Below, one piece after another: positions 2,752 to 21,912 of a stretch of DNA of 21,912 nt. The notes under the pieces were generated by a model. The model searched no databases and had not been told where the DNA came from. It saw only the letters and a list, made by a program, of their open reading frames with translations. The translations under genes and the position numbers were made by a program. The DNA is from a virus. How positions within the stretch are numbered: the first letter of the stretch is position 1; each line of letters opens with the position of its first letter. The stretch lies in the IMG/VR virus record IMGVR_UViG_3300001851_000089, positions 1 through 21,912 of that record; one strand, 5' to 3'.

Positions 2752-2980
2752 TTTGCAATTCTTTTTGTAGTTGTTTTGCCATTTTATTAATTCTCCTTTC
2801 CATCATCCATGCCGCTATTTTATTGTTAGGATGATATACGAAAAGATAATAGAGTCTTTTAAAATTAATAACTACCATTTGCCCCATCAATTCAATAAAC
2901 TTTGCTACATTAGCGTCCATGACAATCATGTATACTAATACAGCAAAAACAATAAAGATGGTATAGTAGTAAGTATTCAT
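2726..2980 (-). CDS. Small membrane protein (84 aa)
   Basis: The start is set at ATG 2980, which overlaps the upstream TGA (ATGA); an in-frame TTG four codons earlier is less likely. The sequence opens MNTYYYTIFIVFAVLVYMIV, a clear N-terminal membrane span. A second, weaker hydrophobic or amphipathic stretch follows (FIELMGQMVVINFKRLYYLF). The C-terminal half is strongly basic and helical (MMERRINKMAKQLQKEL) and should be cytoplasmic. The function is unknown. Small early phage membrane proteins sometimes act in superinfection exclusion or host membrane takeover, but nothing here proves that. Confidence 0.7.
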   Translation of the reverse strand: MNTYYYTIFIVFAVLVYMIVMDANVAKFIELMGQMVVINFKRLYYLFVYHPNNKIAAWMMERRINKMAKQLQKELQNDASRPID

Positions 2981-3162
2981 TCTGGTGACCAATCTTGTTT
3001 TTCTGCTTTACGAAGTTGTTTTAGTTCCTTCATCATATCTTTAATTTCTTGATATGCATGTTCTGGAGACATTTTATCAGAAATTTCTAAACCAACAATT
3101 AATTGAACTTTGTCACCAAAGCGAGCAAGTGCTCGCTCGAAAGCAGATAAATCCTCGTACAT
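2977..3162 (-). CDS. Small helical hypothetical protein (61 aa)
   Basis: The ATG at 3162 follows the methyltransferase stop by two bases, so the gene is probably translated from the same message as the helicase-nuclease-methylase cassette. The protein is charged and looks almost entirely helical (ALARFGDKVQLIVGLEISDK and EIKDMMKELKQLRKAEKQ); the second half could form a short coiled coil. There is no cysteine, signal or membrane segment. It ends in an ATGA junction with the 84-aa membrane protein. No function is recognised. Confidence 0.7.
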   Translation of the reverse strand: MYEDLSAFERALARFGDKVQLIVGLEISDKMSPEHAYQEIKDMMKELKQLRKAEKQDWSPE

Positions 3163-3164
3163 AT

Positions 3165-4001
3165 TTAGACTTCAACTAAGAATGATTCTAGCACAGATTT
3201 TGGTTTTTGTGTAGGATGTTCTGGATACTTAACAATAACCAGTTCTGTCTTTTCATATCGCTTGGTGCCAGACATTTGATATGGGAAGGTAAGATACCTA
3301 AACTCAGTCCAATCTTTATAAAGTGAACATACAGCATCGCTGTTGTCATAAGACATCACGAACCCACCTTTGTGTTGCTTCAAGACCTCACAGAACTGTT
3401 CGTGATCAAATGATTTATGAAGGGCACCATCTTTGCCATAATAATGGCTAACAGTCTCATAATATGGTGGATCCAAGTATAAGAAGTCATTTTCGTGCTT
3501 CGGGATCGTGTCGAAGCAACTGCCATAGGCAAACGACAGGTTCGGATTGTAAAAATTCCTAAGTTTATCAATTCCAGCAATTCGGAACTCTGCTCTAGAC
3601 TTAACGGTAGAACATCCGATCTTTCCTGAGTACGAACCCTTGATTGCAATGTAAAATGACCACGCTCGGGTGAACTTATCCTCACTATCCAACAACGGAA
3701 GGAAGGATTTGTAATGGTCGCTATCAATCAAGGGGAAGTGCTTGGTCACCTCGTCAGCGATGCCAGGAGCGCCTCCAGCGGTCACAATCTCCCAGAAGTC
3801 AGCAAGGGGTCGGAAGATGTCGTAAGACTGTACCTTGACGCCCTGAGACGCCAGTAGGATCTCTGTGGATCCACCACCCATAAACGGTGATACGATGCTG
3901 GTGATACCAGGATTCACATCACGGATGATCTGAATCAGATCCTTTTTCATCCTGTTCTTACCACCAGCGTAGCGATACAGGGAATGGTCAGTTAATTTCA
4001 T
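3165..4001 (-). CDS. Dam/D12-class DNA adenine-N6 methyltransferase
   Basis: The enzyme should transfer a methyl group from S-adenosylmethionine to the N6 position of adenine in a short DNA target. The D12 (Dam) layout is visible: YRYAGGKNRM at residues 9-18, the AdoMet-binding VSPFMGGGST at 37-46, and the catalytic DPPYY at 177-181. The length (278 aa) matches E. coli Dam. The start ATG 4001 is preferred over an in-frame ATG at 4088 because Dam proteins begin just before the AGGK motif and because it gives a 14-base coupled overlap with the HNH gene. The target sequence cannot be read from the protein. It may protect phage DNA from host restriction, mark DNA for the adjacent nuclease, or affect expression. 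Confidence 0.9.
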   Translation of the reverse strand: MKLTDHSLYRYAGGKNRMKKDLIQIIRDVNPGITSIVSPFMGGGSTEILLASQGVKVQSYDIFRPLADFWEIVTAGGAPGIADEVTKHFPLIDSDHYKSFLPLLDSEDKFTRAWSFYIAIKGSYSGKIGCSTVKSRAEFRIAGIDKLRNFYNPNLSFAYGSCFDTIPKHENDFLYLDPPYYETVSHYYGKDGALHKSFDHEQFCEVLKQHKGGFVMSYDNSDAVCSLYKDWTEFRYLTFPYQMSGTKRYEKTELVIVKYPEHPTQKPKSVLESFLVEV

Positions 4002-5013
4002 GGAGTGGTTTAACGTAGTTAAGAAGTTCGGAAACGAAAGATTCTCTATCTGTATATTCCCAGGAAAATCCAGTTTTGTGCTTGACATATTCTACCACAT
4101 CTGCATAGTGGTTGACAAGATCGAGATTTGTGATAACCTTAGCGTCATACAATTTTCCTTTTGCTTGACATTCTTTGTGAAGACGTTTGCCTTCTTCCTC
4201 ATGCTCAACAACTAAACGTGTCAAAGCATAAACAACCTGAGTGTAATTACCATGGTCTCCACCAGCACGTTTAGGACGTTTGGTTCCTAATTGATTAACC
4301 TTATACTTCCTAGCAACGTAACGAAGATAAGATCGTAGTCCTCTGGTTGTATAGGTATTGAAGAGATTAAGACCATCAGTAGGATCCCAATTGTTGATAA
4401 TATCCTTGTGGATATTTTTTTGAGCGATCCTAGTGTTGCTCTTATTATCTCGTTTAAGATATGCTTGCTCACCAGCAGAAACTACTTCTTCTGCTTGCTG
4501 AATCAACCAATCAAAATCATAATTATTTTTGTACTGATTGACCTTGGCATCAACCAACAACCAATTTGATGGATGATCTGTGCCACCAGCAGTCAGTGGA
4601 ATGATGTGATCAATTTGAAAGTAACCAATGTTATCTACTTTAAGACCAGTAATACCACAGGTAAAATTACATTCAATGGCTTTCATGATGAACATGACAC
4701 CCCTAGAATCTGGTGCTGTGTTATTAGCAACAAAAGATTCGGTGTCTTCATCCCACCAACCCATTTGTGCCTTACCATTATCCCTCAGTTGTTTTTTTGC
4801 TGGGGCAGGAAGAGAACGATACAGGTGATATGCTTCAATAAATTCCTGTGAAAGAACATCAGATCTTTTGATTTGATCTGGTTTGATGCTCCTGATATGA
4901 TCAGCACGTTCAACAATCGCCTGAAATTGCTCAAAAGAAGGAAAATATTTTTTACTGGTATCCCTATATGTTGGGAATTTTTTACCAGTAAGGGTAAGTT
5001 CGGGGAAAGTCAT
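3988..5013 (-). CDS. HNH endonuclease (341 aa)
   Basis: A beta-beta-alpha-metal (HNH) nuclease domain lies mid-protein: CNFTCGITG at residues 115-123, then QIDHIIPLTAGGTDHPSNW at 133-151 with candidate catalytic His136, Asn150 and Asn159, followed by KVNQYKNN. The nuclease would cut DNA using a divalent metal. About 110 residues precede it and 170 follow it; these do not match a domain I recognise and may recognise DNA or contact partners. It is much longer than typical free-standing homing HNH enzymes. It starts in an ATGA overlap with the helicase stop, and its own end overlaps the methyltransferase start. Coupling on both sides argues for a stable cassette member rather than a recent homing insertion. 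Confidence 0.87.
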   Translation of the reverse strand: MTFPELTLTGKKFPTYRDTSKKYFPSFEQFQAIVERADHIRSIKPDQIKRSDVLSQEFIEAYHLYRSLPAPAKKQLRDNGKAQMGWWDEDTESFVANNTAPDSRGVMFIMKAIECNFTCGITGLKVDNIGYFQIDHIIPLTAGGTDHPSNWLLVDAKVNQYKNNYDFDWLIQQAEEVVSAGEQAYLKRDNKSNTRIAQKNIHKDIINNWDPTDGLNLFNTYTTRGLRSYLRYVARKYKVNQLGTKRPKRAGGDHGNYTQVVYALTRLVVEHEEEGKRLHKECQAKGKLYDAKVITNLDLVNHYADVVEYVKHKTGFSWEYTDRESFVSELLNYVKPLHEIN

Positions 5014-6248
5014 CGGTTTACAACGGAGATAGCGGGTTTACCTTCAACAAAGATAGTGTTGACGAGATTCTGAAGACGATCGATGGTACGTTGACCATAG
5101 TTCTTGAAGACAGGAACAGTCACGAATCCAGTTGGTTTACGGTACATGGTGAAATTACCAGCAGGTATTTTACCACTAGAAAGATCAGCAGCATCATCAC
5201 GATTGAGACGGATAACCCTACCAATAGTCTGTGCCATCTCGATCACATCGAGAGTACGAAGCAGAATCGTATGAGTAAGACCGTGAACGTTGATACCCTC
5301 AGCAAGAATGCTATAGTGGAAGATCACAAATTTGCGGGAAGGATCCTTACCCCAGTCATTGAAGGTGTCAAAGAACACCTCACGATTTACTTTGGTTTGA
5401 TTGACCCAAGCACCGTATTTGCTGGTGATATGAAGCACATCAAACCAACGATCCTGTAGATCCTGAACAGCAGTAGTTTGTGACAAGAGATTCCACATCA
5501 CTTTGCTGCTAGGAACTGCCACAAGAATCTTGTGATTAGCATCATCACCCATCTCATCAATCATGTTGAGAAGAGTTACGTGATCAGTATTACAGGCAAG
5601 ATCACCCTTGAGGCGTTCGTAATCGACAACGTAAGGAACAACGGTGGGAGGCAAAATATAACCCTGCTCAACCATCTCGGTGGCAGGAACATCACAAATT
5701 ACTTTGCCATAAACATCAACATCATTCATGCCAGGTTTGGCAGCAGTGTTGGAATGTTTGGGAGTAGCAGTGAAGAAGTAGCAACGATCAGCAAGGGCAG
5801 CGAAATACTCAGTGGCAGGGAAAAAGTTGCGTTTGACTGAGTTGTGTGCCTCATCAAAGTAGATCGTGTGTACGTTGACACCAGACTGCTGGATCCGTTT
5901 GAGGGAGTTATAGGTTGTGAAAATCAGTTTGTTACGAGAGTTATGACTCTCGACCCACTGATGGATAACATTGGGGCGAGTCGTGCTAAAGTGATGAGTT
6001 TCACCCGTGTGAACATGAAGAACAGCAGCATTAGTAATATGCTCAAGAAATTCAGCAGACAATTGTTCTGCCAGAAGAATGCGGGGAGCAACCACTACAA
6101 TGGTGGCAGCATTTACAGTCTCAAAAATACGCTTACAGTCAAAAATCATGGTCGGGGTCTTACCAGAACCCGTGGGCATGATAAGTTGACCTTTCGGATT
6201 GTATTCCATAGAAATACAACCACGCTCTTGGTGAGGGCGAAGCAGCAT
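5010..6248 (-). CDS. Superfamily 2 DEAH-box helicase (COG1061/SSL2-like)
   Basis: All main SF2 motifs are present: the N-terminal LRPHQ (residues 3-7), Walker A PTGSGKT at 25-31, VVVAPRILLAEQ at 51-62, DEAH at 132-135, TAT at 160-162, a motif-V-like SILAEGINVHGL at 313-324 and QTIGRVIRLNR at 340-350. It should be an ATP-driven DNA or RNA translocase. It begins directly at the helicase core, with an in-frame TGA five codons upstream, so it lacks the N-terminal domain of T4 UvsW, which is about 590 aa. It is the first gene after the promoter at 6272-6300 and is coupled to the HNH gene by ATGA. It could be a recombination or repair helicase, or the motor of a restriction-like complex. Confidence 0.9.
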   Translation of the reverse strand: MLLRPHQERGCISMEYNPKGQLIMPTGSGKTPTMIFDCKRIFETVNAATIVVVAPRILLAEQLSAEFLEHITNAAVLHVHTGETHHFSTTRPNVIHQWVESHNSRNKLIFTTYNSLKRIQQSGVNVHTIYFDEAHNSVKRNFFPATEYFAALADRCYFFTATPKHSNTAAKPGMNDVDVYGKVICDVPATEMVEQGYILPPTVVPYVVDYERLKGDLACNTDHVTLLNMIDEMGDDANHKILVAVPSSKVMWNLLSQTTAVQDLQDRWFDVLHITSKYGAWVNQTKVNREVFFDTFNDWGKDPSRKFVIFHYSILAEGINVHGLTHTILLRTLDVIEMAQTIGRVIRLNRDDAADLSSGKIPAGNFTMYRKPTGFVTVPVFKNYGQRTIDRLQNLVNTIFVEGKPAISVVNR

Positions 6249-6271: not shown

Positions 6272-6300
6272 ATTATGGCATTAAAAAAGGGGTCTGTCAA
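6272..6300 (-). promoter_or_regulatory. Sigma70-type promoter for the helicase operon
   Basis: Read on the minus strand, a perfect -35 hexamer TTGACA (6300-6295) is followed by a 17-base spacer and CATAAT (6277-6272), one mismatch from the -10 consensus. Transcription would start near 6265, about 17 bases before the helicase ATG. This fits an early promoter read by host RNA polymerase. The -35 box lies within the loop and inner stem of the terminator hairpin of the preceding operon. It is predicted from sequence only. Confidence 0.65.
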
Positions 6301-6307
6301 GACCCCT
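6283..6307 (-). terminator. Rho-independent terminator ending the fibre operon
   Basis: On the minus strand, eight-base arms (6300-6307 and 6288-6295, AGGGGTCT with AGACCCCT) flank a four-base loop TGAC and are followed by a run of T down to 6283. The stem is GC-rich and begins 7 bases after the stop of the 128-aa gene. This is a textbook intrinsic terminator, placed exactly at the change from virion genes to the helicase cassette. Confidence 0.9.
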
Positions 6308-6314
6308 GTGACAG

Positions 6315-6701
6315 TTATTCAGTTGGTTGCTGTGGTGTCGGAATTTTATCAGACAATCCAACTAAAGAATCATTAGCATATGCCAAGTTTCCATTACTAA
6401 AAATAAAGAATTGAACAAAATAATCTGGATCGCCATTTTTATTCATTGGAAAATTCTGAATACCAAAATCATATGCCTCTTCTTCACTATCAAATTCTAC
6501 GAATGTGAATTCATTATACAAGAATTTATCAAAGAAATCAGCTCTATCTGATTCAAAATTTGTTTTGTATATAGAATAAATATGATTTACTTTATCTTCA
6601 TCCGTAGCATTGTCTGGTCCTGTAGTTCTTATCATCATAACAGTTGTATTCATTGTTTCAGTCCAATGTATAATAAATTCAACAAAATCTCTTGCTATCA
6701 T
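6315..6701 (-). CDS. Acidic hypothetical protein (128 aa), last gene of the fibre operon
   Basis: I do not recognise a family. The protein is acidic and rich in Phe and Tyr: it has a hydrophobic start (ARDFVEFIIHWTETMNTTVMMI), a middle with FVEFDSEEEAYDFGIQNF at about 68-85, then DPDYFVQFFIFSNG and a polar Pro/Thr tail. It has no membrane span. Its ATG overlaps the TGA of the 314-aa gene (ATGA) and its stop is followed at once by the terminator, so it belongs to the fibre operon. A role in fibre assembly or as a minor virion protein is a guess from position. Confidence 0.72.
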   Translation of the reverse strand: MIARDFVEFIIHWTETMNTTVMMIRTTGPDNATDEDKVNHIYSIYKTNFESDRADFFDKFLYNEFTFVEFDSEEEAYDFGIQNFPMNKNGDPDYFVQFFIFSNGNLAYANDSLVGLSDKIPTPQQPTE

Positions 6702-7642
6702 TGATCTTCTCCTTGTACACTTAACTTAATATCATCAATATTCTCTAATAAAGAATACTGTTGTATGATGTCATACATTTCTTTGGTAATAGGAACGCCA
6801 TTTTCTTGGCGATCTTTAAATGTTTTAATAGCATATTTTAGTTGTTCGCTAATCAATGTTTCTCTATACTCAGTCATTGATGTATCAGCAAATATAAATT
6901 GATCTGGAGTTGATAGATATTCAACTTCATGATCTGGATACATATTATGATAAGTTTCTGGATTAACTGGCCATTTAAATTCTTCAGTATAAATCAAAAA
7001 GTCTAGTTCACCTTCAAACTCTTCTGGTTTTTTAGGCGCAACTCTTACAAAATCTCTCCATTGTTTCCATAATTCTCTTTCTCCATCAAATGATTGTGGA
7101 GCATCTTCTAAAATTCTCCAGTCAGTTTCTCTTAACATTTGATCAGATTTTTTCAGCACAGCCAAATAAAATCTATCTAGATAAACATCTTTTTTTGCTA
7201 AGGAAACTAAAGCACTATTTTTATCATTTTCGTTCTTAGTATTTTGTATAAAAATAGCTGCCTTCAAAGCATCTGTAATTTTAGTGGCATCCTCAATAGA
7301 AAGATTTTTATATTCATATCTTACCCATTTAGTTTCTTTTGTTTCAAAATCATATTTTAATTTTTCTTTTTCAAAGAATACTCTACCATTTTTATGTACA
7401 GCAAATAATAGAATTCTATCATTTTCATTAGTCCATTCATCTGGTAAATAAGTCAACAGATTTTTATTTACAGTTTCTGTCAAATATATTGCATTGTATT
7501 CATATTCATTTGTTTTAGAATCTCGAAGTCTTAGATAAATCAATCTATTTTTTGCATCATATTCTATAAGTGTAGGATTATCTTCAGGTACTTCTAATTT
7601 TGTAAAAACAAAATCATCTGGATTGAAAATTGGTGTCGCCAT
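6698..7642 (-). CDS. Tail fibre assembly chaperone-like protein (314 aa)
   Basis: Residues about 164-230 carry the pattern of phage tail assembly chaperone (Phage_tail_APC-type) proteins: KSDQMLRETDWRILEDAP, then ELWKQWRDFVRVAP and a FKWPVNPETY end. In such proteins the TDW segment and the W-x2-(Y/W)R stretch sit just upstream of a Pro-rich end. The 160 residues before it (strands FVFTKLEV, RLIYLRLR, NEYEYNAIYL, GRVFFEKEK) and the helical 85 residues after it are unassigned. The gene lies directly downstream of the 1951-aa fibre, the usual place for a fibre-specific chaperone. It probably helps fold, trimerise or attach that fibre. It is longer than simple chaperones of this kind. Confidence 0.65.
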   Translation of the reverse strand: MATPIFNPDDFVFTKLEVPEDNPTLIEYDAKNRLIYLRLRDSKTNEYEYNAIYLTETVNKNLLTYLPDEWTNENDRILLFAVHKNGRVFFEKEKLKYDFETKETKWVRYEYKNLSIEDATKITDALKAAIFIQNTKNENDKNSALVSLAKKDVYLDRFYLAVLKKSDQMLRETDWRILEDAPQSFDGERELWKQWRDFVRVAPKKPEEFEGELDFLIYTEEFKWPVNPETYHNMYPDHEVEYLSTPDQFIFADTSMTEYRETLISEQLKYAIKTFKDRQENGVPITKEMYDIIQQYSLLENIDDIKLSVQGEDQ

Positions 7643-7667: not shown

Positions 7668-10600
7668 TTAATAAGCTTTGATTAACCATTTCACCCAAAC
7701 GTAGGAAGTAATCAAAGGCACTTTAGATTGAGGTGCTAAAGATGGAGTAGGTATCAACTGTTTATTGGCATTAAGAGTAAATTTACCTTGTAAAACTTCT
7801 ATTCCCAATTGAGCAGCAGTTCTTGTTATAGTTACAGATGTATTTGTTGGGGTTCCAGCTGTTGCTGTTCCCTGATCATCAGAATTACCATAACTAAATT
7901 TAGTATTAAAATCTGTTAAAGCATTCAAACTTAAATAGTGGGAATGGTTATTTTTTGTAGTTGGAATATATCCAGAAATACCTATATTTTTAGATGGAAT
8001 GTCAACAGCACCAACAAATTTATAATTATTACCACTGTTTATTGCTGATGTACTAGTTGGAAATGGTTCGCTAGTAAGATTAATATAAGAATTTATTTCG
8101 TCATAATTAGCATCACCAATATTTCCAATATTTGTTTGATTATATTGTACTGGGTCCCAAGTACCACTAATATACTGTCCAGTATATCCTGGTCCACCAC
8201 CATTAACAATAATATTAATACATCCACCAGGAGAAGGAGAGAACTGATCAAGCGATTTAAGCCATACAATCGTTCCATCAGAATCTAAAGAAGTTGAAAT
8301 AGTATTTGCTGTTGTTAATGGAATCCAACCGCTAGATGGTTTAATAGCATATCCCCAAAGATTAATTTGAACTATAGTATTATTAACAATTGGAGAAGAT
8401 GGTAAACTACTAGTTACAACTACGTTACTAGATACTCCACCTTCTGAATTCCAATATACAATTCCTTTACTTCCATCTCCGCCACCAACTGGATCTGGTT
8501 GACCAGTTAATAAATTATGAGTATGAGTTGGAATATCATATAATTTAGTGCTTTTTAATGAGAAAGAACCAGATGTTTGACCACTTGTACTAAATTCAAC
8601 TGCTCCATTTACATTAGTATAACCTGTTGTAGAAATTGTACCAATAGCAAAATAATCACTTTCAGTTGGTGTTAATCCAGTTCCAGGTGTTTTAACTTGA
8701 GGAATACTTTGAGCACCAGGAACAGCAATTTGATCTATGTACCACAATCCACCATGAGATCCTGGTGTGAGGTTTGATTTATTACTACTATTTTTTGCTG
8801 GACCATAATCAGGTATAAGAGCAGGAGATGAAGCAGCATTACCATCTAAAGTTCCAGTTCCAACTGGTTTTTTATTTCTCATATCAGGAAGTCTAAAATC
8901 ACCTCCAACATTTGCTCCATATAAAGTTCCAATAATAGAATATAAAGCTGGATAATCAGTAGGACTTACATATGAACCATCACATAAAATCCATCCTGGG
9001 AATCTAGAATCTGCTTTTCCACTTAAATTACCCCATCCATCAGTTTGAGTTACATCTTTAAAAACTGGCATCATAGATCCAATTGGCAACCCATCAAATT
9101 TAGTAGCAAATTTATATTGAGTTGTACCAGAAGTTTGTACCATGTTTAAACCACTATACCATTGACCCAAAATAGGATCTGGTGTAGGAGCTGGACTAAA
9201 CACTGTGAAAGTAGTTGAAAATCCACCTACAGTAACATTTGTGTTAACAGAAAATCCTGCTATTCCACTCGATAATAATTGAACTCTTAATGTATCTCCA
9301 TTTGTTATCAATAATGGAGCAGAAGAAGTATATGAGTTAAAAGAACCACCATTTTTGCTTAATAATGCTCCATTTGTAGCAAAAGCTCCAACTGTAGTAC
9401 CTAAACCACTAATAGTTACAATATTGCTATAAGTAGCAGTTGAGACTGCTGCTGCTGTTACAGTAGGAAATGTAAAAGCATTTGGTACTGTTCCAAAATT
9501 ACCAGCATTTGTAACTACCCATGTAGTTGTATACGTGCCAGCAGTAATATTAAAAGTTTTAGATTCTCCAGCTATATTTGATGTTTGATATTTTAATTTT
9601 ACTACGTCATATAATGAAACTGTAGTAGATGTAAGTCCTGTATCAACATCATTAACAATGATAGTTGGGAGAGATCCTGTTTGCCCAGTACTATTTGTGA
9701 CTACAAATGGAATAGTAGTATCGATACTTTGTATTGTAATAGCATTACTATAAACATATGTACTTAAATTTTGGTTTGTTAATGTAATAAAATTAAATGA
9801 TGTTGGAGTGTTATCTGGCGCTATACCAGTGCTTACTACCCAAGTAGTTGACGCTCCAGTTCCTACACTTACTAATGAATTTACACTACTAGAATATGAA
9901 GTTGGTGATAAAATTCTCAATTTAAATCCTTGACCATTGCTAATGGTTCTAGGAGAAGCAGAAAAAGTATCACAGGTAATTCCATTACATATTGATATCA
10001 AAGCGCCATTACTTGCTGTTATAGACACTGGAACATTAATACCAGTAATTTGAACAATACTACTATCTACTAAAGTATTTGGTGTTTGATTGCTTAAATT
10101 GGGTATTACAAAAGCATTTGGTGTTGTAACTGGAGGATCACCTGTACTAATATTCCAATATTGAGTAGCATCACCTACATTAACAGTTAATGTATAACCA
10201 CTATAATATAAAGATCCCGTTGTCATTCTTAACTGTATAAACTGACCATTTGTAACGGTAGCACTATTACCCCAAGTTCCACAACCTGTACCTTGTCCAG
10301 TACAAACTCTTATCTGTTGGTTTGTTCCATTACTGCTAATTGAAATTGGTAAATATCCAGTGAATCCTGTTATTTGGATATAATCACTATCATATGTTGT
10401 ATTTGGCGTTGCTCCAGTTATTGGAGTAATAGTAAATGGATCTGGACTAATATCTTGAGGAGGATAAGAAATATAAACCATGCCATCAGCACCAGTTCCT
10501 GCTCCTAAATTAACAACACTTGTACTAAGTGTCACCCAAGCAGATTTATAATAAGATCCTCCACCACTACCACCATTAGCATCTAAATCAGTAGTAGCAA

Positions 10601-13523
10601 GAGTTCCCCCAAATTCATCAATTAATATGCTATTTGTTGTTCCAGCAATTCCATAACCACCTCCAGCACCTCCACCTCCGCCTCCTCCCGTTACAGGAGC
10701 ATTTTGACCAGATAATCCAGTTAAATTTAATCCAATTAAACTATCAATTTGATTTATTCCATTTCCACTATTATTACCATTTTGTGTAGGTTTTGGTATT
10801 GTCGTATCATCACCAGCACCACCACCGCCACCTCCGCCTCCAGCAAGAGCAATTAAAGTTCCATCTACAAGTGTAATAGCAGCTGCACCACCACCACCTC
10901 CACCTGTTCCAGAATATACAGCAGTAGCGGTAGCGCCTCCAGCACCTCCTGTAGCATAACCAAATCCTCCTGCTCCACCATTAACTGCTTTTGAAAAACT
11001 AACTCCATCAATTCCTTTAGTAGGAGCGAAAATTCTGATTTTTCTAGCAATTGGATCTGACCAAGTTACTTTAGTAGTATCAAAAGTTCCCATAAGAACA
11101 TTACCAAATCCACCTCTACCACCATAACTATTCGGAGAATCATCACCACCATTTCCACCACCTGCTCCAACTAAAACAAAATCTAAAGTATCTGCCCATT
11201 GTGGAAGAGTATATTCAATATAAGTATTAGTTCCTGTATAAGGAGTAATAGTATATCCACTTTTTGGTGTGGCAATTGTAAAAGTATCTTGTACATTTCC
11301 ACATCTATAAACAATTTTTTGTGCTACGTTATAAGATGAAGAAGCTGTTGCTTTTATGTATAGAGTGCTTGTTCCAGAAGGAACATTAAAAATTGTAGTA
11401 AAATAATTTACTCCATCTAAACTTATTTGAGCATTAGAACCAGCAGTTTGAGTTACAATTGTGGCATCTGTACTAGCATCTAATCCAGAAATAGTAACTG
11501 ATCTCGCATATGTAAATCCTGGATTAGCATCATATATATCTTTAACTTTAAATGGATATGGATCTGTTCTTGCTGTTCTTGTTTTAACTGTTATTGTTGC
11601 TGTCTTATCAGTAAATGTTGGTGGATTTGGACCAGCTGTTGGATTTTGAACCCCAAGAGAAGTTGGATTTCCAGCTGGAGGTCCTTGTAATGTTATCGTA
11701 CTAGATTTGCTAGTATTATAAGATGTAGATGCTGTTTGTTTAATTGTAACAATATCACCATTTTTAACTACTAAAGTAGTTCCCCATGTTCCAGTATTAT
11801 TTTTTCTAATTAAAGCGTCACCTTGAGACACTACACAACCAACACTTACTGTTTGACCACTTATTGATGCATCTACAGTAAATGGTAACGTATAAGAACT
11901 AGTTCTAGTTACAAGGGGAGTTTCAAGATCACTGTAAGTTCCAGTTGTATATTCTGTTCCTAATCCACTTATTGTTATATCAGAATAATATGTTAAACCT
12001 ATTTCAGCATTATTTAATGTAGAGGTTGTGGAAACATTAACAAGTCTAAATTCAATAATTTTTACCTGAGCGTTTGTAGTACCACCATTAACAGTTAAAA
12101 TATCATCAACTGTATATGGACCTGTTCCTCTTTCTACAGTTTGTACTACTTGAATAGCACCAGTTACAGAATCAGTAGCAAGAACTTTTACTGTTAGACC
12201 AGTAGCAGTTGGATGTGTAGTATTTGTTGTGGTATAAGTGTTTCCAACAACATATCCTGTTCCTCCAGATGATACCGTAGATAATGGTAAAGAATCTGTA
12301 TTTGTATAAATTGGAGCAAAATCAACAGCATTTGGATATCTATCTACTTCAGTCCATATCTGCCAATCATCTTGTTTACTACCTAATGTCTGTGTTACGG
12401 CATAAGTACCAGAACCATATGTGCCAGTATTATTATTTAAATATGTAGTACCACCAATTGTGGCAGTATCACCACCAACAGCATAAACTGTAAAAGCACC
12501 AGTAGTTTTTGTTGTATATGTACTTCCAACTGGTAACCTAGTGTATAAAGTGTCACCTAATTTTAATTGTGTTACTGCTTGTGACCACGTTACACCATCA
12601 CTTGATATTTGACCATTTCCAGTAGCAGTTGCTCGTAGCAACGCATCGTTGTCAATACCAGTGATAGAAATATTTTGAGTTTTATATGTAGAAAAATCAG
12701 TTGGACCTAAATCTACATAATCAACGAATAATCCACTATATAAAGTTGTAATTGCTTGTAATTGTGCTCTAGTTGTGATGCTCCATGTATCAGAAACAGC
12801 ATTACCAGCACCCCAATAATTATCAGAAAGAGTTAAGGTTACATTAGTATTTGTTGTATACCAATTTTCAGTTTGTATTCTTAATCTTACTGTATCGTTA
12901 TTAGTAACAGTATAATATTGAGTTAAAGAAGTTGCTGTTGCTGTTGCTGATGCTAAATTAGAAAGAGTTACATTAGTTCCAGATATACCAACTATTTCAC
13001 CAGATATAGCAGTACCAGATAAATATCTTCCAACTACTAAATTACCAACATTGGTTACATTGCTAATAACATTGCTTCCAGAAGTTGTATTACCAGTAAC
13101 AACTAAAGATTGAGTTGAAGTGGTAATATATGGTCCGCCATTAACAGAAAAAGCAGCATTAGCAAGATTAGGATAAGTTCCCTTTGGACCAGATCCAGAT
13201 GTGGCAATAGAAATTGGAATTCTTACTTCTAATCCACCTACTGTAATTAAATTTGAATAATAGGTAGTATTTTTTTCAAAAGTACTTACAAAATCTCCTG
13301 GTAATGTTGCTGATGGATTAGTAGATCCAGAATTATCAGTAAAAGTAAAAGTATTTGGTTGTGCATCTGGCACTTTAGTTGCTAAAGTAACTCCATTTGG
13401 ATCAACACCAGTACCAATTTGTACTTGAACAGTTACTGATGTATTCCATGTCGATGGAGTGGGATATCTAATTTCTATTTGATCTCCAGCACCAACATAT
13501 ACTGGCGTACTGCTAAATGGCAT
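7668..13523 (-). CDS. Giant mosaic tail fibre / receptor-binding protein (1951 aa)
   Basis: This is a modular beta-rich fibre. Residues 1-750 contain several Ig-like beta-sandwich segments (for example ISGLDASTDATI) and, near 425-490, two GTGY/GTGPY-type repeats. A glycine-rich sandwich with runs of up to eight Gly spans about 770-1020. Four tandem Ig-like repeats of about 105 residues follow (1028-1448). A phage tail collar domain then lies at about 1485-1560 (PIGSMMPVF, GWILCDGS, DFRLPDMRNKKPVGTG). The end carries two HxH motifs (HTH near 1665, HSH near 1859) and the C-terminus VWVKWLIKAY. HxH motifs bind metal in T4 gp37 and gp12 tips. It should act as a trimeric distal fibre or adhesin contacting the host surface. 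Confidence 0.85.
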   Translation of the reverse strand: MPFSSTPVYVGAGDQIEIRYPTPSTWNTSVTVQVQIGTGVDPNGVTLATKVPDAQPNTFTFTDNSGSTNPSATLPGDFVSTFEKNTTYYSNLITVGGLEVRIPISIATSGSGPKGTYPNLANAAFSVNGGPYITTSTQSLVVTGNTTSGSNVISNVTNVGNLVVGRYLSGTAISGEIVGISGTNVTLSNLASATATATSLTQYYTVTNNDTVRLRIQTENWYTTNTNVTLTLSDNYWGAGNAVSDTWSITTRAQLQAITTLYSGLFVDYVDLGPTDFSTYKTQNISITGIDNDALLRATATGNGQISSDGVTWSQAVTQLKLGDTLYTRLPVGSTYTTKTTGAFTVYAVGGDTATIGGTTYLNNNTGTYGSGTYAVTQTLGSKQDDWQIWTEVDRYPNAVDFAPIYTNTDSLPLSTVSSGGTGYVVGNTYTTTNTTHPTATGLTVKVLATDSVTGAIQVVQTVERGTGPYTVDDILTVNGGTTNAQVKIIEFRLVNVSTTSTLNNAEIGLTYYSDITISGLGTEYTTGTYSDLETPLVTRTSSYTLPFTVDASISGQTVSVGCVVSQGDALIRKNNTGTWGTTLVVKNGDIVTIKQTASTSYNTSKSSTITLQGPPAGNPTSLGVQNPTAGPNPPTFTDKTATITVKTRTARTDPYPFKVKDIYDANPGFTYARSVTISGLDASTDATIVTQTAGSNAQISLDGVNYFTTIFNVPSGTSTLYIKATASSSYNVAQKIVYRCGNVQDTFTIATPKSGYTITPYTGTNTYIEYTLPQWADTLDFVLVGAGGGNGGDDSPNSYGGRGGFGNVLMGTFDTTKVTWSDPIARKIRIFAPTKGIDGVSFSKAVNGGAGGFGYATGGAGGATATAVYSGTGGGGGGAAAITLVDGTLIALAGGGGGGGGAGDDTTIPKPTQNGNNSGNGINQIDSLIGLNLTGLSGQNAPVTGGGGGGGAGGGYGIAGTTNSILIDEFGGTLATTDLDANGGSGGGSYYKSAWVTLSTSVVNLGAGTGADGMVYISYPPQDISPDPFTITPITGATPNTTYDSDYIQITGFTGYLPISISSNGTNQQIRVCTGQGTGCGTWGNSATVTNGQFIQLRMTTGSLYYSGYTLTVNVGDATQYWNISTGDPPVTTPNAFVIPNLSNQTPNTLVDSSIVQITGINVPVSITASNGALISICNGITCDTFSASPRTISNGQGFKLRILSPTSYSSSVNSLVSVGTGASTTWVVSTGIAPDNTPTSFNFITLTNQNLSTYVYSNAITIQSIDTTIPFVVTNSTGQTGSLPTIIVNDVDTGLTSTTVSLYDVVKLKYQTSNIAGESKTFNITAGTYTTTWVVTNAGNFGTVPNAFTFPTVTAAAVSTATYSNIVTISGLGTTVGAFATNGALLSKNGGSFNSYTSSAPLLITNGDTLRVQLLSSGIAGFSVNTNVTVGGFSTTFTVFSPAPTPDPILGQWYSGLNMVQTSGTTQYKFATKFDGLPIGSMMPVFKDVTQTDGWGNLSGKADSRFPGWILCDGSYVSPTDYPALYSIIGTLYGANVGGDFRLPDMRNKKPVGTGTLDGNAASSPALIPDYGPAKNSSNKSNLTPGSHGGLWYIDQIAVPGAQSIPQVKTPGTGLTPTESDYFAIGTISTTGYTNVNGAVEFSTSGQTSGSFSLKSTKLYDIPTHTHNLLTGQPDPVGGGDGSKGIVYWNSEGGVSSNVVVTSSLPSSPIVNNTIVQINLWGYAIKPSSGWIPLTTANTISTSLDSDGTIVWLKSLDQFSPSPGGCINIIVNGGGPGYTGQYISGTWDPVQYNQTNIGNIGDANYDEINSYINLTSEPFPTSTSAINSGNNYKFVGAVDIPSKNIGISGYIPTTKNNHSHYLSLNALTDFNTKFSYGNSDDQGTATAGTPTNTSVTITRTAAQLGIEVLQGKFTLNANKQLIPTPSLAPQSKVPLITSYVWVKWLIKAY
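9180..10442 (-). repeat. Four tandem Ig-like protein repeats of about 105 residues
   Basis: Within the 1951-aa fibre, four units begin with related strands: DPFTITPITGATPNTTYDSD, NAFVIPNLSNQTPNT, SFNFITLTNQNLSTYVYSN and NAFTFPTVTAAAVSTATYSN. Each continues with an I-x-G/I-x-S segment, an NG-containing turn and a closing W or F strand before the next unit. Coordinates are approximate. This resembles the beta-sandwich repeats of many bacterial and phage surface proteins. Units 1 and 2 each hold a close pair of cysteines, which units 3 and 4 lack. Confidence 0.65.
10656..10906 (-). repeat. Polyglycine codon tracts
   Basis: Three GGN-codon runs, at about 10656-10689, 10811-10844 and 10886-10906, encode glycine runs in the sandwich domain of the 1951-aa fibre. 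Similar runs occur in the 527-aa gene, near 15081-15103 and 15225-15305. The DNA is locally GC-rich and repetitive inside an AT-rich gene. Confidence 0.7.
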
Positions 13524-18183: not shown

Positions 18184-21100
18184 TTAGATTTCCATTAACC
18201 ACCAACCTTGTTGTGTTGTTGGAGCTCCAGTGCTAGTACCATCATAATTAGTAGCTCCAATGAAAATTAGACCCAAAGCAGCATTAGGAGTTTGTACAAT
18301 CAATTCTCCACCATTATAAGATGTTCCTGGATCTGGAGTTCCACCAGCATTAGTACCATCTCCTTGAATTTTTATTCCAGTAGGTGCTCTAAATTTAAGT
18401 GAAACGTTATATGTTAATAATCCACCAACATCAACAACACGAATTGTATCACCAGTTGTTGGAGTTAAAGGTAACTTAATTACAAGATTAGCGGATGGAG
18501 CAACAAAATAATTTACGTTTGATTGAGCATCAACAGTTTCTACACCACCACCAGCATAAACCCATTTTCTAGCTCCAGTTGGAGTAAAGAATCCAGTTTG
18601 TCCAGCATAATCAATAGATCCACTATTGTTAATTTTGAAAATACTAGTTTCAGTACCATTTACAATTTTACTAACTGTCAAATCACCACCAGTTACTCTT
18701 AAATCTCCAGAAAGAAGATTTTCTCCCAATCCACTGGTAGTTATTACACCACTGATTGTAAGATTACCTGTAGTATTTTGTAGTGTTAGTCTATTCGTAG
18801 TTCCATCACTAGCAGTAATTGTCAAATTACCACCTTTCAATAAAGTATTACCAGTGGATCCAGTAACAACAAATTTATCGTATAGACTTCCGCCTACGTT
18901 TAGGTTTCCATAAATTGATGTATTTCCATTGGCACTGTCAACAATAAATGTATTAGTGCCATTTCCATCAGTAACAACTAATTTATCTGTATTTGCTGTA
19001 GTAGATCCAGAAAGAGTTAATGTTTGATATACTGTTGCTGTTCCAAAAATATTTGTATTGCCATTAGTAGAATCAATAGTAAATACTTCTGTAGCTGGAT
19101 TTCCACCATCATTTACAACAAATCTTTGTACTGTAGTTAATGAGACAGCATTTACATACGTGAGTTCTCCAAGATATCCTTCTGAAGTAGAAGATAATCT
19201 AAAGAGATCGCCAACAGCAACAGTTCCACTAAATGTTCCAGCAGAAAGAGTTTGTAGTGTACCAGAAGATGGAGCGTTTAAAGTAGATGTTAAGTAACTT
19301 ACAGTCTTAGAGAAGTTGTATCTCACTAAAACAGCATTATCTGGGTGATCTTGTCTTAAATATTTGTATCCACTTGGAGCTGAATTATCAACTACCATTC
19401 CACCAGATGAATTTAATTGGTTTCTTGCTCTCTTAACTGTTAATCTTAAAGAAGGTGGGGTTGTAATATTGTTGATGTTTGTAATTTCAACAATTTGTAC
19501 TAATTCACTATATTGCTCTCCGACTGGAGATACAGTAGTATTTTGACCTGTTACTTGTACGGATCTATCAATTAACAGATAAGCACCAACTTCATATTCC
19601 AATGAAGATGCCACTTCTCCAATAGGTAAGTAATAAGTTTCTGGATCACTAGGAGAAACTCTCCATGTTGTATTACCATAAACAGCTGCTCCTTCAGTAT
19701 CTAAAGTTTTGTTAATTGTCTGTCTCTTAAACAAATCAATATTAAAGTTTGTTGTATTGTTTCCAGCAGTGTGTGATTGAGTAGCAACGCCAAAAGAACC
19801 TCTTCTTACCTGGAATAAACCAGAATTTAATCCACCAGCTAAAGTAGTATCACCATTAAATGATGAATTAGCAAGGACTGTTAATGAGTTTTGTACTGTA
19901 GTAGTTCCACCTAAAGCACCAATGTTTATTGAAGAAGCAGCAGTAGCTAAATTAACTTTTGATGTTGTAATTGTTAAGAAGTCTACTTGCTGAGCATTTG
20001 ATTGTAATCTAGCTATTCCAGTACCAGATAATAATCCTTTACCGAACGAAAGATCTCCATCAAAATAAGCGTAACGGTTATAAACTTTCAATACACTACC
20101 GTTAACCAAACTATCACTATTTTTGGAATATGCTCCACCAATTTTAACAACACTTGTACTATTTGTATTAGTGTTATTGGAAGTTCCAAGTGAAATTACG
20201 GAACTAACTGTACCCGAATGTATATTTAAAACTCCAGTAGTGCTAAAAGCACCAATATTTACTGTTGATGTAGGAGCAATATTACCAATATTAATTACTT
20301 GATTTCCTGTCGATGCGCTTCCGATATTTAAATTATTAACATTGTCAAAAGCATTAATATCAGTTGGAGTAGTTAAGAAATTAAAGAATGAAGATGAAGT
20401 TGATAAAGATCCACCATTAACATCAAGATTTGCTTGTACTTTAAAATCACCCGTAATTCTTCCATTTCCAACAACAACTAAAGTTCTGTCTAGATCAGTA
20501 TTAGCAGTTCCATTATTTGTAGTATTAATACCAACTCTACCACTATTTGTGGTCATTACTCTTAATGTAGCAGCAGCATCTGGAACAGAACTATCGCCAC
20601 CAACTAAGAAAGCATTATTTACAGCATTAAATGTTCTATTAGCAAGTAATGGATTGGCAACAAAATTGCCATTTGCTAGAGTTTTGCCACTAATAAATGC
20701 TGTTCCTACGAGATCTAAATTAGCTCTTGGTTGAACGGCAGTAGAAACGAAACCATTAATTTGATCACCATTAGTACCATGCTGTGCTCTGGCAAGAGTA
20801 TTAATTCCTAATCTAAAGTCTCCATAATTATCTGTGTTTGTTCTTAAAGCTTCTCCACCAATTGGAGCAACTTCTTTCCAAGAATTTCTTGAAATTTCAA
20901 TTGTTGCTCCAGTAATTAATGTAGGATCATTAGGACTTGTTGAAATTACAAATGGAGTAGAAACAATAAAAGTAGTAGCAGTTTTAGATGTTACTGTTCT
21001 AATTCCATTAACATTAGTGAATCTACCAGTTAATCCACTAATTCTTAAAGTAGATCCAACAACAATATTAACGGCAGAATCAGATGTATTAACTCCTGCT

Positions 21101-21912
21101 TTAAGATTAAATTGAACTGAAGTATTTCCTAAAGCAGTAGATGTAAATACACTTGATGTTATATCAGCATAGTAGTTTGTATAAATCCATCCAAGTGATC
21201 CCGTAGAACCTACTTCTTTACCTTTTAATAGAACATCTCCTGGTTTTGGTGATGCTAATCCAAACTGAACAGCAAGACCTAAAGAACTATTCTCTTGATT
21301 AGGTGTTTGATTAGATGGAGTGTATCCGTTTGTTTGATCAGCATGTGTTCTAATACTATAATCTTGTCCACTTAATAATGTATTTCCTCTTGGATTCAAG
21401 TTATAAACTCCAGCCCATAGTTGATTCTTATGAGCTACAATGTTACCACTTGAAGGAATCGTGCTCAAATCAAACGATTGACTATCTAATGATAAATCTT
21501 CACCAGCAGTAGAAGATACGTTAGATACTACAGTTAAAGCATTTGATTCAGATGCTTCTACATTAATTGTAACAGGATTGTTGAAGTTAGCGTTTCCATC
21601 AACTGTGATATCTTTTTCAAATACTACAGGCAATTCAAATGTAGTTACTAGTCCACCAATATCACCAGTTTCATCAGCAGCAGTTGTCAATACTGCTTGC
21701 TCTAAGAACGTTTCTTGACCTGTAATAGCGTTGATCTTACGATTACCAATATAAAGGTCACCGTTGGAGTTTAATCCAGTATAGAATACAATACCACCGT
21801 TTTCTTTCTTAGATTGAGCATAGAAGTCTTGAATATCTGAAAGAACAACTTCTTGACGTAGTGGGAAACCAGTTGAGTAGTTACCAGGACCGAAACCTAG
21901 ATATTCAAACGT
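18184..21912 (-). CDS. Large fibre-like virion structural protein, N-terminus beyond window
   Basis: The frame is open to the right edge. An in-frame TTG at 21690 could be mistaken for a start, but the 74 codons upstream are fully coding-like (YLGFGPGNYSTGFPLRQEVV, DLYIGNRKINAITGQETFL), so the gene is 5'-incomplete with 1242 residues visible. The body is a low-complexity beta-rich fibre with repeats such as FTIDSTNGNTNIFG, FIVDSANGNTSIYG and STGNTLLKGGNL, typical of trimeric phage shafts. The C-terminal domain (TGDTIRVVDVGG, ending GWWLMEI) looks like a globular end domain. No signal peptide, catalytic site or HxH motif is seen. A role as a long fibre or baseplate-linked shaft is inferred. 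Confidence 0.82.
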   Translation of the reverse strand, partial: TFEYLGFGPGNYSTGFPLRQEVVLSDIQDFYAQSKKENGGIVFYTGLNSNGDLYIGNRKINAITGQETFLEQAVLTTAADETGDIGGLVTTFELPVVFEKDITVDGNANFNNPVTINVEASESNALTVVSNVSSTAGEDLSLDSQSFDLSTIPSSGNIVAHKNQLWAGVYNLNPRGNTLLSGQDYSIRTHADQTNGYTPSNQTPNQENSSLGLAVQFGLASPKPGDVLLKGKEVGSTGSLGWIYTNYYADITSSVFTSTALGNTSVQFNLKAGVNTSDSAVNIVVGSTLRISGLTGRFTNVNGIRTVTSKTATTFIVSTPFVISTSPNDPTLITGATIEISRNSWKEVAPIGGEALRTNTDNYGDFRLGINTLARAQHGTNGDQINGFVSTAVQPRANLDLVGTAFISGKTLANGNFVANPLLANRTFNAVNNAFLVGGDSSVPDAAATLRVMTTNSGRVGINTTNNGTANTDLDRTLVVVGNGRITGDFKVQANLDVNGGSLSTSSSFFNFLTTPTDINAFDNVNNLNIGSASTGNQVINIGNIAPTSTVNIGAFSTTGVLNIHSGTVSSVISLGTSNNTNTNSTSVVKIGGAYSKNSDSLVNGSVLKVYNRYAYFDGDLSFGKGLLSGTGIARLQSNAQQVDFLTITTSKVNLATAASSINIGALGGTTTVQNSLTVLANSSFNGDTTLAGGLNSGLFQVRRGSFGVATQSHTAGNNTTNFNIDLFKRQTINKTLDTEGAAVYGNTTWRVSPSDPETYYLPIGEVASSLEYEVGAYLLIDRSVQVTGQNTTVSPVGEQYSELVQIVEITNINNITTPPSLRLTVKRARNQLNSSGGMVVDNSAPSGYKYLRQDHPDNAVLVRYNFSKTVSYLTSTLNAPSSGTLQTLSAGTFSGTVAVGDLFRLSSTSEGYLGELTYVNAVSLTTVQRFVVNDGGNPATEVFTIDSTNGNTNIFGTATVYQTLTLSGSTTANTDKLVVTDGNGTNTFIVDSANGNTSIYGNLNVGGSLYDKFVVTGSTGNTLLKGGNLTITASDGTTNRLTLQNTTGNLTISGVITTSGLGENLLSGDLRVTGGDLTVSKIVNGTETSIFKINNSGSIDYAGQTGFFTPTGARKWVYAGGGVETVDAQSNVNYFVAPSANLVIKLPLTPTTGDTIRVVDVGGLLTYNVSLKFRAPTGIKIQGDGTNAGGTPDPGTSYNGGELIVQTPNAALGLIFIGATNYDGTSTGAPTTQQGWWLMEI

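What the first reader, a model, noticed from the sequence alone, without database searches (positions are those of the whole stretch)
3165..6248. Coupled helicase, HNH nuclease and adenine methyltransferase cassette
Three DNA-acting enzymes form one translational unit: the helicase stop and HNH start share ATGA, and the HNH end overlaps the likely methylase start by 14 bases. An own promoter precedes them. A motor, a nuclease and a modification enzyme together recall restriction-modification logic (methylate self, cut other DNA). They may also be a phage repair or recombination module. The HNH protein has long flanking regions of unknown fold. GATC, the Dam target, occurs repeatedly in the window, so it is not visibly avoided.
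Basis: partly seen in the sequence, partly recalled or inferred. Interest (0 to 1): 0.65.

Follow-up and report, generated by a model that had tools for sequence, protein, structure and literature searches.

The report
Cyanophage nuclease-methylase cassette with purged target
A virus of cyanobacteria carries a two-gene DNA-cutting and DNA-marking cassette, and every virus found with this pair has removed one short DNA word (YGCR) from its genome, which suggests a virus-borne restriction weapon and names the sequence to test it on.

Summary
Helicase, HNH nuclease and D12 methyltransferase genes overlap by 4 and 14 bp behind a promoter-like site. The unit is not the three genes, though. The helicase is a core cyanophage gene: 61 of 66 metagenomic helicase loci lack the pair. 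HNH plus methyltransferase is a portable two-gene insert. It is absent from an empty site (L201/L202), sits in three helicase lineages, and occurs without the helicase in an unrelated phage (L122). The HNH gene alone has been swapped at least twice (24% and 46% identity) between conserved neighbours (methyltransferase 95% and 99%).

Unexpectedly, carriers avoid YGCR: observed/expected 0.00-0.23 in 31 carrier loci, 0.43-0.95 in 56 non-carrier loci. It holds for all HNH alleles, in unrelated L122, within the helicase gene alone, and against a close non-carrier (L173). GATC is not avoided, and the methyltransferase falls below the curated Dam cut-off. One phage with the same methyltransferase type but no HNH (G015) also avoids YGCR, so the signature follows the methyltransferase at least as well as the nuclease.

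Best reading: a phage-borne restriction-modification-type cassette aimed at YGCR-like sites of host or rival DNA. Specificity, cleavage and the methylated base are untested.

The parts
5010..6248 (-). SF2 (ResIII/DEAD) helicase, 412 aa; resident core cyanomyovirus gene, left border of the insert, not specific to the cassette
   Evidence: phrog_16 1e-58; 418 cyanophage records, under 60% identity; 61 of 66 metagenomic loci lack the cassette
3988..5013 (-). HNH nuclease, allele A, 341 aa; exchangeable partner gene
   Evidence: full-length homologous to alleles B, C, D at 20-27% identity
4606..4608 (-). HNH catalytic H136, invariant in all alleles
   Evidence: alignments A1 and A8
4564..4566 (-). 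HNH motif N150, invariant
4537..4539 (-). HNH motif N159, invariant
3165..4001 (-). D12-class DNA methyltransferase, 278 aa; not the core cyanophage Dam (37% identical to S-PM2 Dam)
3582..3629 (-). putative target-recognition segment SGKIGCSTVKSRAEFR (residues 125-140), shared by YGCR-avoiding phages, different in relatives that do not avoid YGCR
   Evidence: alignments A6 and A9; role inferred from position
3462..3473 (-). methyltransferase motif IV DPPY (residues 177-180)
   Evidence: invariant
5010..5013 (-). ATGA overlap of helicase stop and HNH start
3988..4001 (-). 14-bp overlap of HNH stop and methyltransferase start; the other alleles inspected appear to overlap here too
6272..6300 (-). 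sigma-70-like promoter match TTGACA-17-CATAAT (11 of 12)
   Evidence: consensus match only
6288..6307 (-). terminator-like hairpin plus T run, for the gene upstream
2977..3162 (-). DUF7219 (phrog_765) gene: right border of the insert; directly follows the helicase in cassette-free L201/L202
2726..2992 (-). phrog_3344 gene, second gene of the right border, same order in L201/L202

Best explanation
HNH nuclease and D12 methyltransferase form a two-gene, horizontally moving, phage-borne restriction-modification-type cassette, inserted behind a resident helicase gene. The nuclease is proposed to cut DNA at a YGCR-type site (TGCA, TGCG/CGCA, CGCG) in host or competing-phage DNA. The carrier is spared because it has purged these sites from its genome and, where sites remain, because the methyltransferase marks them. 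Shown here: gene order, coupling, co-inheritance, empty site, swapping of the HNH gene alone, purifying selection on HNH, intact motifs, and YGCR avoidance in all carriers. Inferred: that YGCR is the target of either enzyme, that HNH cuts it, which base is methylated, and the biological role (nucleotide recycling or exclusion of rival phages).
For: Linkage: every informative locus with methyltransferase identity of 74% or more has HNH directly upstream (33 or more contigs); an HNH-profile scan finds the same contigs. Portability: three separate helicase lineages; L201/L202 have helicase-DUF7219-phrog_3344 with the pair missing; L122 has HNH-methyltransferase without the helicase, followed by an MvaI/BcnI-family restriction enzyme and an N6/N4 methyltransferase. 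Target signature: YGCR obs/exp 0.00-0.23 in 31 carriers vs 0.43-0.95 in 56 non-carriers; CGCA is the best of 136 words (p=1.5e-14); helicase gene alone p=9.6e-13; close pair L036 4 vs L173 93 YGCR sites with 352 vs 311 other NGCN sites, Fisher 4.7e-23; L122 phage 65/307. HNH dN/dS well below 1. HNH relatives lie next to or near DNA methyltransferases in S-TIM5, ACG-2014f and RN05-S.
Against: G015 carries the same methyltransferase type without any HNH match and still avoids YGCR (70/250), so the signature may belong to the methyltransferase or a different partner. An N6-adenine enzyme cannot protect CGCG and protects only one strand of TGCG. If methylation protected the phage, purging TGCA would not be needed. 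HNH was swapped to 24% identity with the methyltransferase almost unchanged, unusual if both must share one specificity. In S-CBWM1 the HNH relative is not near a methyltransferase. Avoidance can be imposed by a host restriction system, and the hosts of the carriers are unknown. The HNH alleles B, C and D reach no Pfam HNH model at its cut-off.
Confidence: 0.55

Rival explanations
1. The methyltransferase protects the phage against a YGCR-cutting restriction system of its hosts; YGCR avoidance is a second layer against the same host enzyme; HNH has some other job such as host DNA breakdown.
For: Phages commonly avoid host restriction sites (general knowledge); G015 avoids YGCR with the methyltransferase but no HNH; the carrier lineages could share such hosts.
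Against: HNH is always present with the methyltransferase in cyanophage carriers of this type; L173 is closely related and has no avoidance; L122/G014 lacks the cyanophage helicase and differs in G+C, so a shared host is unlikely; for the analogous RGCY word, S-TIM5 and S-H9-2 on the same host strain WH8102 differ completely (0.97 vs 0.18).
Confidence: 0.22
2. HNH is a free-standing homing endonuclease that exploits the helicase-methyltransferase junction; the methyltransferase is an ordinary phage gene.
For: HNH phage genes are often homing enzymes near conserved genes (PMC10448857); HNH alleles are exchanged precisely between conserved flanks; L039/L040 have helicase and a distant methyltransferase without HNH.
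Against: No HNH-free locus with a methyltransferase of 74% identity or more; the empty site lacks both genes, not HNH alone; HNH stays with the methyltransferase in L122 where the helicase is absent; homing does not explain genome-wide YGCR purging.
Confidence: 0.1
3. All three proteins work together as a helicase-driven restriction or repair machine (Type I/III-like, or methyl-directed repair).
For: Overlapping genes; the helicase has a ResIII domain.
Against: The helicase occurs in hundreds of cyanophages without the other two next to it; L122 has the pair without the helicase; HNH is not MutH-like and no Mod/Res fusion is present.
Confidence: 0.05
4. YGCR avoidance is a by-product of lineage-specific composition and unrelated to the cassette.
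For: Phylogenetic non-independence; most cyanomyoviruses also avoid RGCY and CCGG for unknown reasons; two core-type-Dam fragments of unknown cassette status avoid YGCR.
Against: Concordant in about five separate settings (three helicase lineages, L122, G015), with close non-carrier controls L173 and L201, and no exception among 56 non-carriers.
Confidence: 0.1

Closest known systems
Type II restriction-modification systems carried by viruses (chloroviruses, Marseilleviridae GATC system; PMC7253447)
   Same: Nuclease and DNA methyltransferase pair in a lytic virus; proposed use against host DNA or competing viruses
   Different: Here the nuclease is an HNH protein with little match to solved structures, it is swapped independently of the methyltransferase, and the carrier genome is purged of the putative site; activity not shown
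Core cyanophage Dam (S-PM2 Dam, S-H38, Syn1 and others)
   Same: D12 methyltransferase family; 37% identity to S-PM2 Dam
   Different: Different locus and recognition segment; long contigs can carry both (G002, G012) or only the cassette enzyme (G001)
phrog_3561 proteins of cyanophages (S-TIM5 552 aa, ACG-2014f 796 aa, S-CBWM1, S-N03), annotated as virion structural or unknown
   Same: Related to the HNH protein over most of its length (Foldseek E 1e-9 to 5e-6; PHROG hits); next to or near DNA methyltransferases in three of four sequenced phages examined
   Different: Larger proteins, about 15-31% identity, not in a helicase-HNH-methyltransferase cassette; the stretches examined do not avoid YGCR
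Free-standing phage HNH homing endonucleases
   Same: HNH gene between conserved phage genes, allele exchange by flanking recombination
   Different: Tied to a methyltransferase, no HNH-only empty site in close relatives

Membership tests
Type II restriction-modification system | endonuclease and methyltransferase genes side by side and co-inherited | tested here: met
   33 or more contigs plus unrelated L122
Type II restriction-modification system | catalytic motifs intact in both enzymes | tested here: met
   H136, N150, N159 invariant; DPPY and SPFxGGGS present
Type II restriction-modification system | both enzymes act on the same sequence | tested here: inconclusive
   YGCR avoidance links the cassette to one word, but which enzyme reads it is unknown, and G015 shows it without HNH
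Type II restriction-modification system | methylation blocks cleavage | not testable with these tools
   needs enzymology or methylome data
Dam (GATC) methyltransferase | score above the curated Dam subfamily cut-off (TIGR00571) | tested here: not met
   51.3 vs 114.85 bits
Dam (GATC) methyltransferase | methylation of GATC | not testable with these tools
   GATC not avoided, which neither supports nor excludes it
Type III restriction system | Res subunit (helicase plus nuclease) together with Mod | tested here: not met
   no nuclease domain detected in the helicase and it occurs without a neighbouring methyltransferase
Homing endonuclease | nuclease gene alone present/absent at one site | tested here: not met
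   empty site L201/L202 lacks both genes; no HNH-only absence when methyltransferase identity is 74% or more
Homing endonuclease | cleaves the cognate empty site | not testable with these tools
   needs cleavage assay
phrog_3561-type cyanophage HNH proteins | profile or fold match beyond the HNH core | tested here: inconclusive
   allele C: PHROG 7e-10 and Foldseek 2.6e-9; window allele A does not reach the phrog_3561 profile

The most novel reading that the evidence does not exclude
A phage restriction system whose self/non-self discrimination rests mainly on purging the target word from its own genome. The nuclease reads YGCR, including CGCG which holds no adenine. The paired D12 enzyme therefore either methylates the central cytosine, which would be unusual for this family, or is only a secondary safeguard, which would explain why the nuclease can be swapped over an almost constant methyltransferase.
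Probability: 0.27. Interest if true: 0.82.

Novelty: new variant of a known kind. Interest (0 to 1): 0.62.

Why it matters
If true, some aquatic phages carry portable restriction modules and have edited their genomes genome-wide to survive them. That would make phage-phage exclusion and host DNA breakdown in cyanobacteria directly testable with one four-letter word, and would offer new HNH nucleases and a methyltransferase of unknown specificity. It would also show that word avoidance in a phage genome can reflect the phage's own enzymes rather than its host's.

Tried and rejected
Helicase as part of the system: rejected by distribution. GATC as target: no avoidance signal. Bacterial origin: two genome-contig scans, with the HNH and the methyltransferase profiles, gave no relative; these are pattern-limited, so not proof of absence. 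Solved structures: only the HNH core matched, weakly, to Cas9 HNH (Z 5.6 and 5.1) and the Gme HNH nickase 4h9d (Z 5.0 and 4.7), below the level to trust; allele A model pLDDT 76, allele C 87. A more specific context around YGCR: residual sites in G001 show no clear flanking rule by eye and are spread along the genome. Idea that the core cyanophage Dam explains RGCY avoidance: three D12-bearing isolates avoid it and four without do not, but the ACG-2014f stretch has Dam and barely avoids RGCY, so not adopted. Literature: no paper in the library on a YGCR methyltransferase (one search found only an unrelated use of the term).

Full report
What is there. The window is a 21,912-base IMG/VR virus fragment with tail-fibre-like genes and a helicase whose relatives occur in 418 phage records, nearly all cyanophages. 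On the minus strand, 6248-3165 encodes an SF2 helicase (ResIII 5.6e-19), an HNH protein (HNH_4 6.7e-6) and a D12 DNA methyltransferase (2.8e-15). The helicase stop and HNH start share ATGA; the HNH stop lies 14 bp inside the methyltransferase. In the other alleles inspected the methyltransferase start also appears to overlap the HNH end (read from the junction sequences). A promoter-like 11-of-12 match at 6300-6272 overlaps a terminator-like hairpin. The next gene, DUF7219, begins 2 bp after the methyltransferase.

The unit is two genes, not three. The helicase is a core cyanomyovirus gene. Of 66 metagenomic helicase loci with at least 1.5 kb of sequence downstream, 5 have the pair and 61 do not. 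It is probably not UvsW: long contigs carry a second ResIII helicase in an open frame of 491-497 aa. By contrast HNH and methyltransferase go together. All informative loci with a methyltransferase at least 74% identical have HNH directly upstream, and an HNH-profile scan returns the same contigs plus a few truncated ones. L201/L202 are an empty site: helicase, 25 bp, DUF7219, phrog_3344, in the order that in the window follows the methyltransferase. In the helicase tree the carriers form three separate groups: the window with L045 and L006; L010, L031, L033 and L036, whose nearest row is the non-carrier L173; and the C/D-allele group. In L122, a virus contig in which no relative of this helicase was seen near the pair, HNH (29% identical) and methyltransferase (64%) sit together, followed by an MvaI/BcnI-family restriction enzyme and an N6/N4 methyltransferase. 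Neither gene was found in 85,000 prokaryote genomes by pattern scan.

The HNH gene is swapped alone. The window and L045 are 90% identical in helicase and 95% in methyltransferase but 24% in HNH. DNA identity falls from about 85% to about 40% at the helicase stop and recovers at the start of the methyltransferase. L034 and L035 repeat this: 92%, 99% and 46%. Within alleles HNH is under purifying selection (for example dN 0.021, dS 0.58 for L033/L036), and H136, N150 and N159 are invariant. Outside the HNH core the fold has no convincing solved match. The nearest relatives beyond the core are larger cyanophage proteins of phrog_3561, which lie next to or near DNA methyltransferases in S-TIM5, ACG-2014f and RN05-S but not in S-CBWM1.

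The methyltransferase is not GATC Dam on present evidence. It scores 51 bits against a Dam cut-off of 115. It is distinct from the core cyanophage Dam (37% identical to that of S-PM2), and G002 and G012 carry a second D12 enzyme. GATC frequency is normal.

A word signature. I compared 4-letter words (maximal-order Markov expectation, both strands) in 31 carrier loci and 56 non-carrier helicase loci. Of 136 words the best separator was CGCA/TGCG (median 0.10 vs 0.81, no overlap, p=1.5e-14). TGCA (0.10 vs 0.64) and CGCG (0.00 vs 0.55) are the two most different palindromes. Together these are YGCR. As a class it is 0.00-0.23 in carriers and 0.43-0.95 in non-carriers. In the window it is 27 observed against 140 expected; in the 190-kb contig G001 it is 91 against 1055, spread along the genome. 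Inside the helicase gene alone the YGCR share is 0.00 in carriers and 0.25 in non-carriers (p=9.6e-13). L173, whose helicase is 88-90% identical to one carrier group, has 93 YGCR sites where carrier L036 has 4, with similar counts of other NGCN words. L122's contig has 65 against 307. All HNH alleles show it. Phages without any D12 enzyme (S-CRM01, S-TIM5, Syn5, P-SSP7) show no avoidance. The many loci are not independent; the number of separate settings is about five, and the p-values should be read with that in mind.

What complicates it. G015 has a methyltransferase of the same type with a different upstream gene and no HNH by profile search, yet avoids YGCR (70/250). Relatives with a different recognition segment (GDxGHTSE instead of GKIGCST) do not avoid it (0.73). 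So the signature follows the methyltransferase's recognition segment at least as well as the nuclease. N6-adenine methylation cannot protect CGCG and covers only one strand of TGCG, so either the base is a cytosine or purging does the protecting. Two core-Dam fragments, L277 and L279, also avoid YGCR; their cassette status is unknown.

Mechanism. The most economical reading is a virus-borne restriction-modification-type cassette: the nuclease attacks YGCR sites in host or rival DNA, while the carrier has lost nearly all such sites and may methylate the rest. The precedent is large DNA viruses, where chlorovirus pairs attack host DNA and the Marseilleviridae pair acts against rival viruses (PMC7253447). 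Non-carrier cyanophages have about 5-11 YGCR sites per kb against 0.3-1.7 in carriers, so a YGCR nuclease would discriminate well between them. Cleavage, methylation and specificity remain to be shown.

Noticed in passing
window whole; L048, L162, L163, L096: RGCY (AGCT, AGCC/GGCT, GGCC) is strongly avoided in most cyanomyoviruses (S-H38 0.06, S-H9-2 0.18, S-PM2 0.22, window 0.30) but not in S-TIM5, S-CRM01, Syn5 or P-SSP7, which lack a D12 methyltransferase; S-TIM5 and S-H9-2 share host strain WH8102. The ACG-2014f stretch (has Dam) barely avoids it. Unexplained.
   Followed up: partly
G001 loci L151-L159; window: CCGG is completely absent from 180 kb of the 190-kb carrier contig (115 expected) and from the window (7 expected), but present in some other carriers (L034, L035).
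   Followed up: no
L122:2910-7225 and L149, L150 (G014): Dense restriction cluster in a virus contig: HNH, D12 methyltransferase, MvaI/BcnI-family endonuclease, N6/N4 methyltransferase, weak MunI-like hit; GGCC absent (0 of 153 expected).
   Followed up: partly
L096:2827-3828, L101:3607-4605, L145:2794-3882: Methyltransferase relatives without HNH are flanked by 330-360-aa proteins that look ParB-like (weak ddrB-ParB hit for one; otherwise by eye), perhaps alternative partners.
   Followed up: no
L277, L279: Two fragments carrying the core-type Dam avoid YGCR (0.20, 0.17); they may be parts of cassette-bearing genomes but this could not be shown.
   Followed up: partly
L092:869-3996: A 761-aa helicase-like protein and a 286-aa unknown protein lie between the core helicase and a methyltransferase relative; no family match for the second.
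   Followed up: no
L089:3003-3686: Putative GIY-YIG/NUMOD3 homing-type nuclease directly downstream of a methyltransferase relative.
   Followed up: no
window 7668-13523 and 18184-21912: Very long tail-fibre-like ORFs (1951 aa and over 1242 aa) with glycine-rich stretches; a tail chaperone (phrog_4697) at 6698-7642.
   Followed up: no
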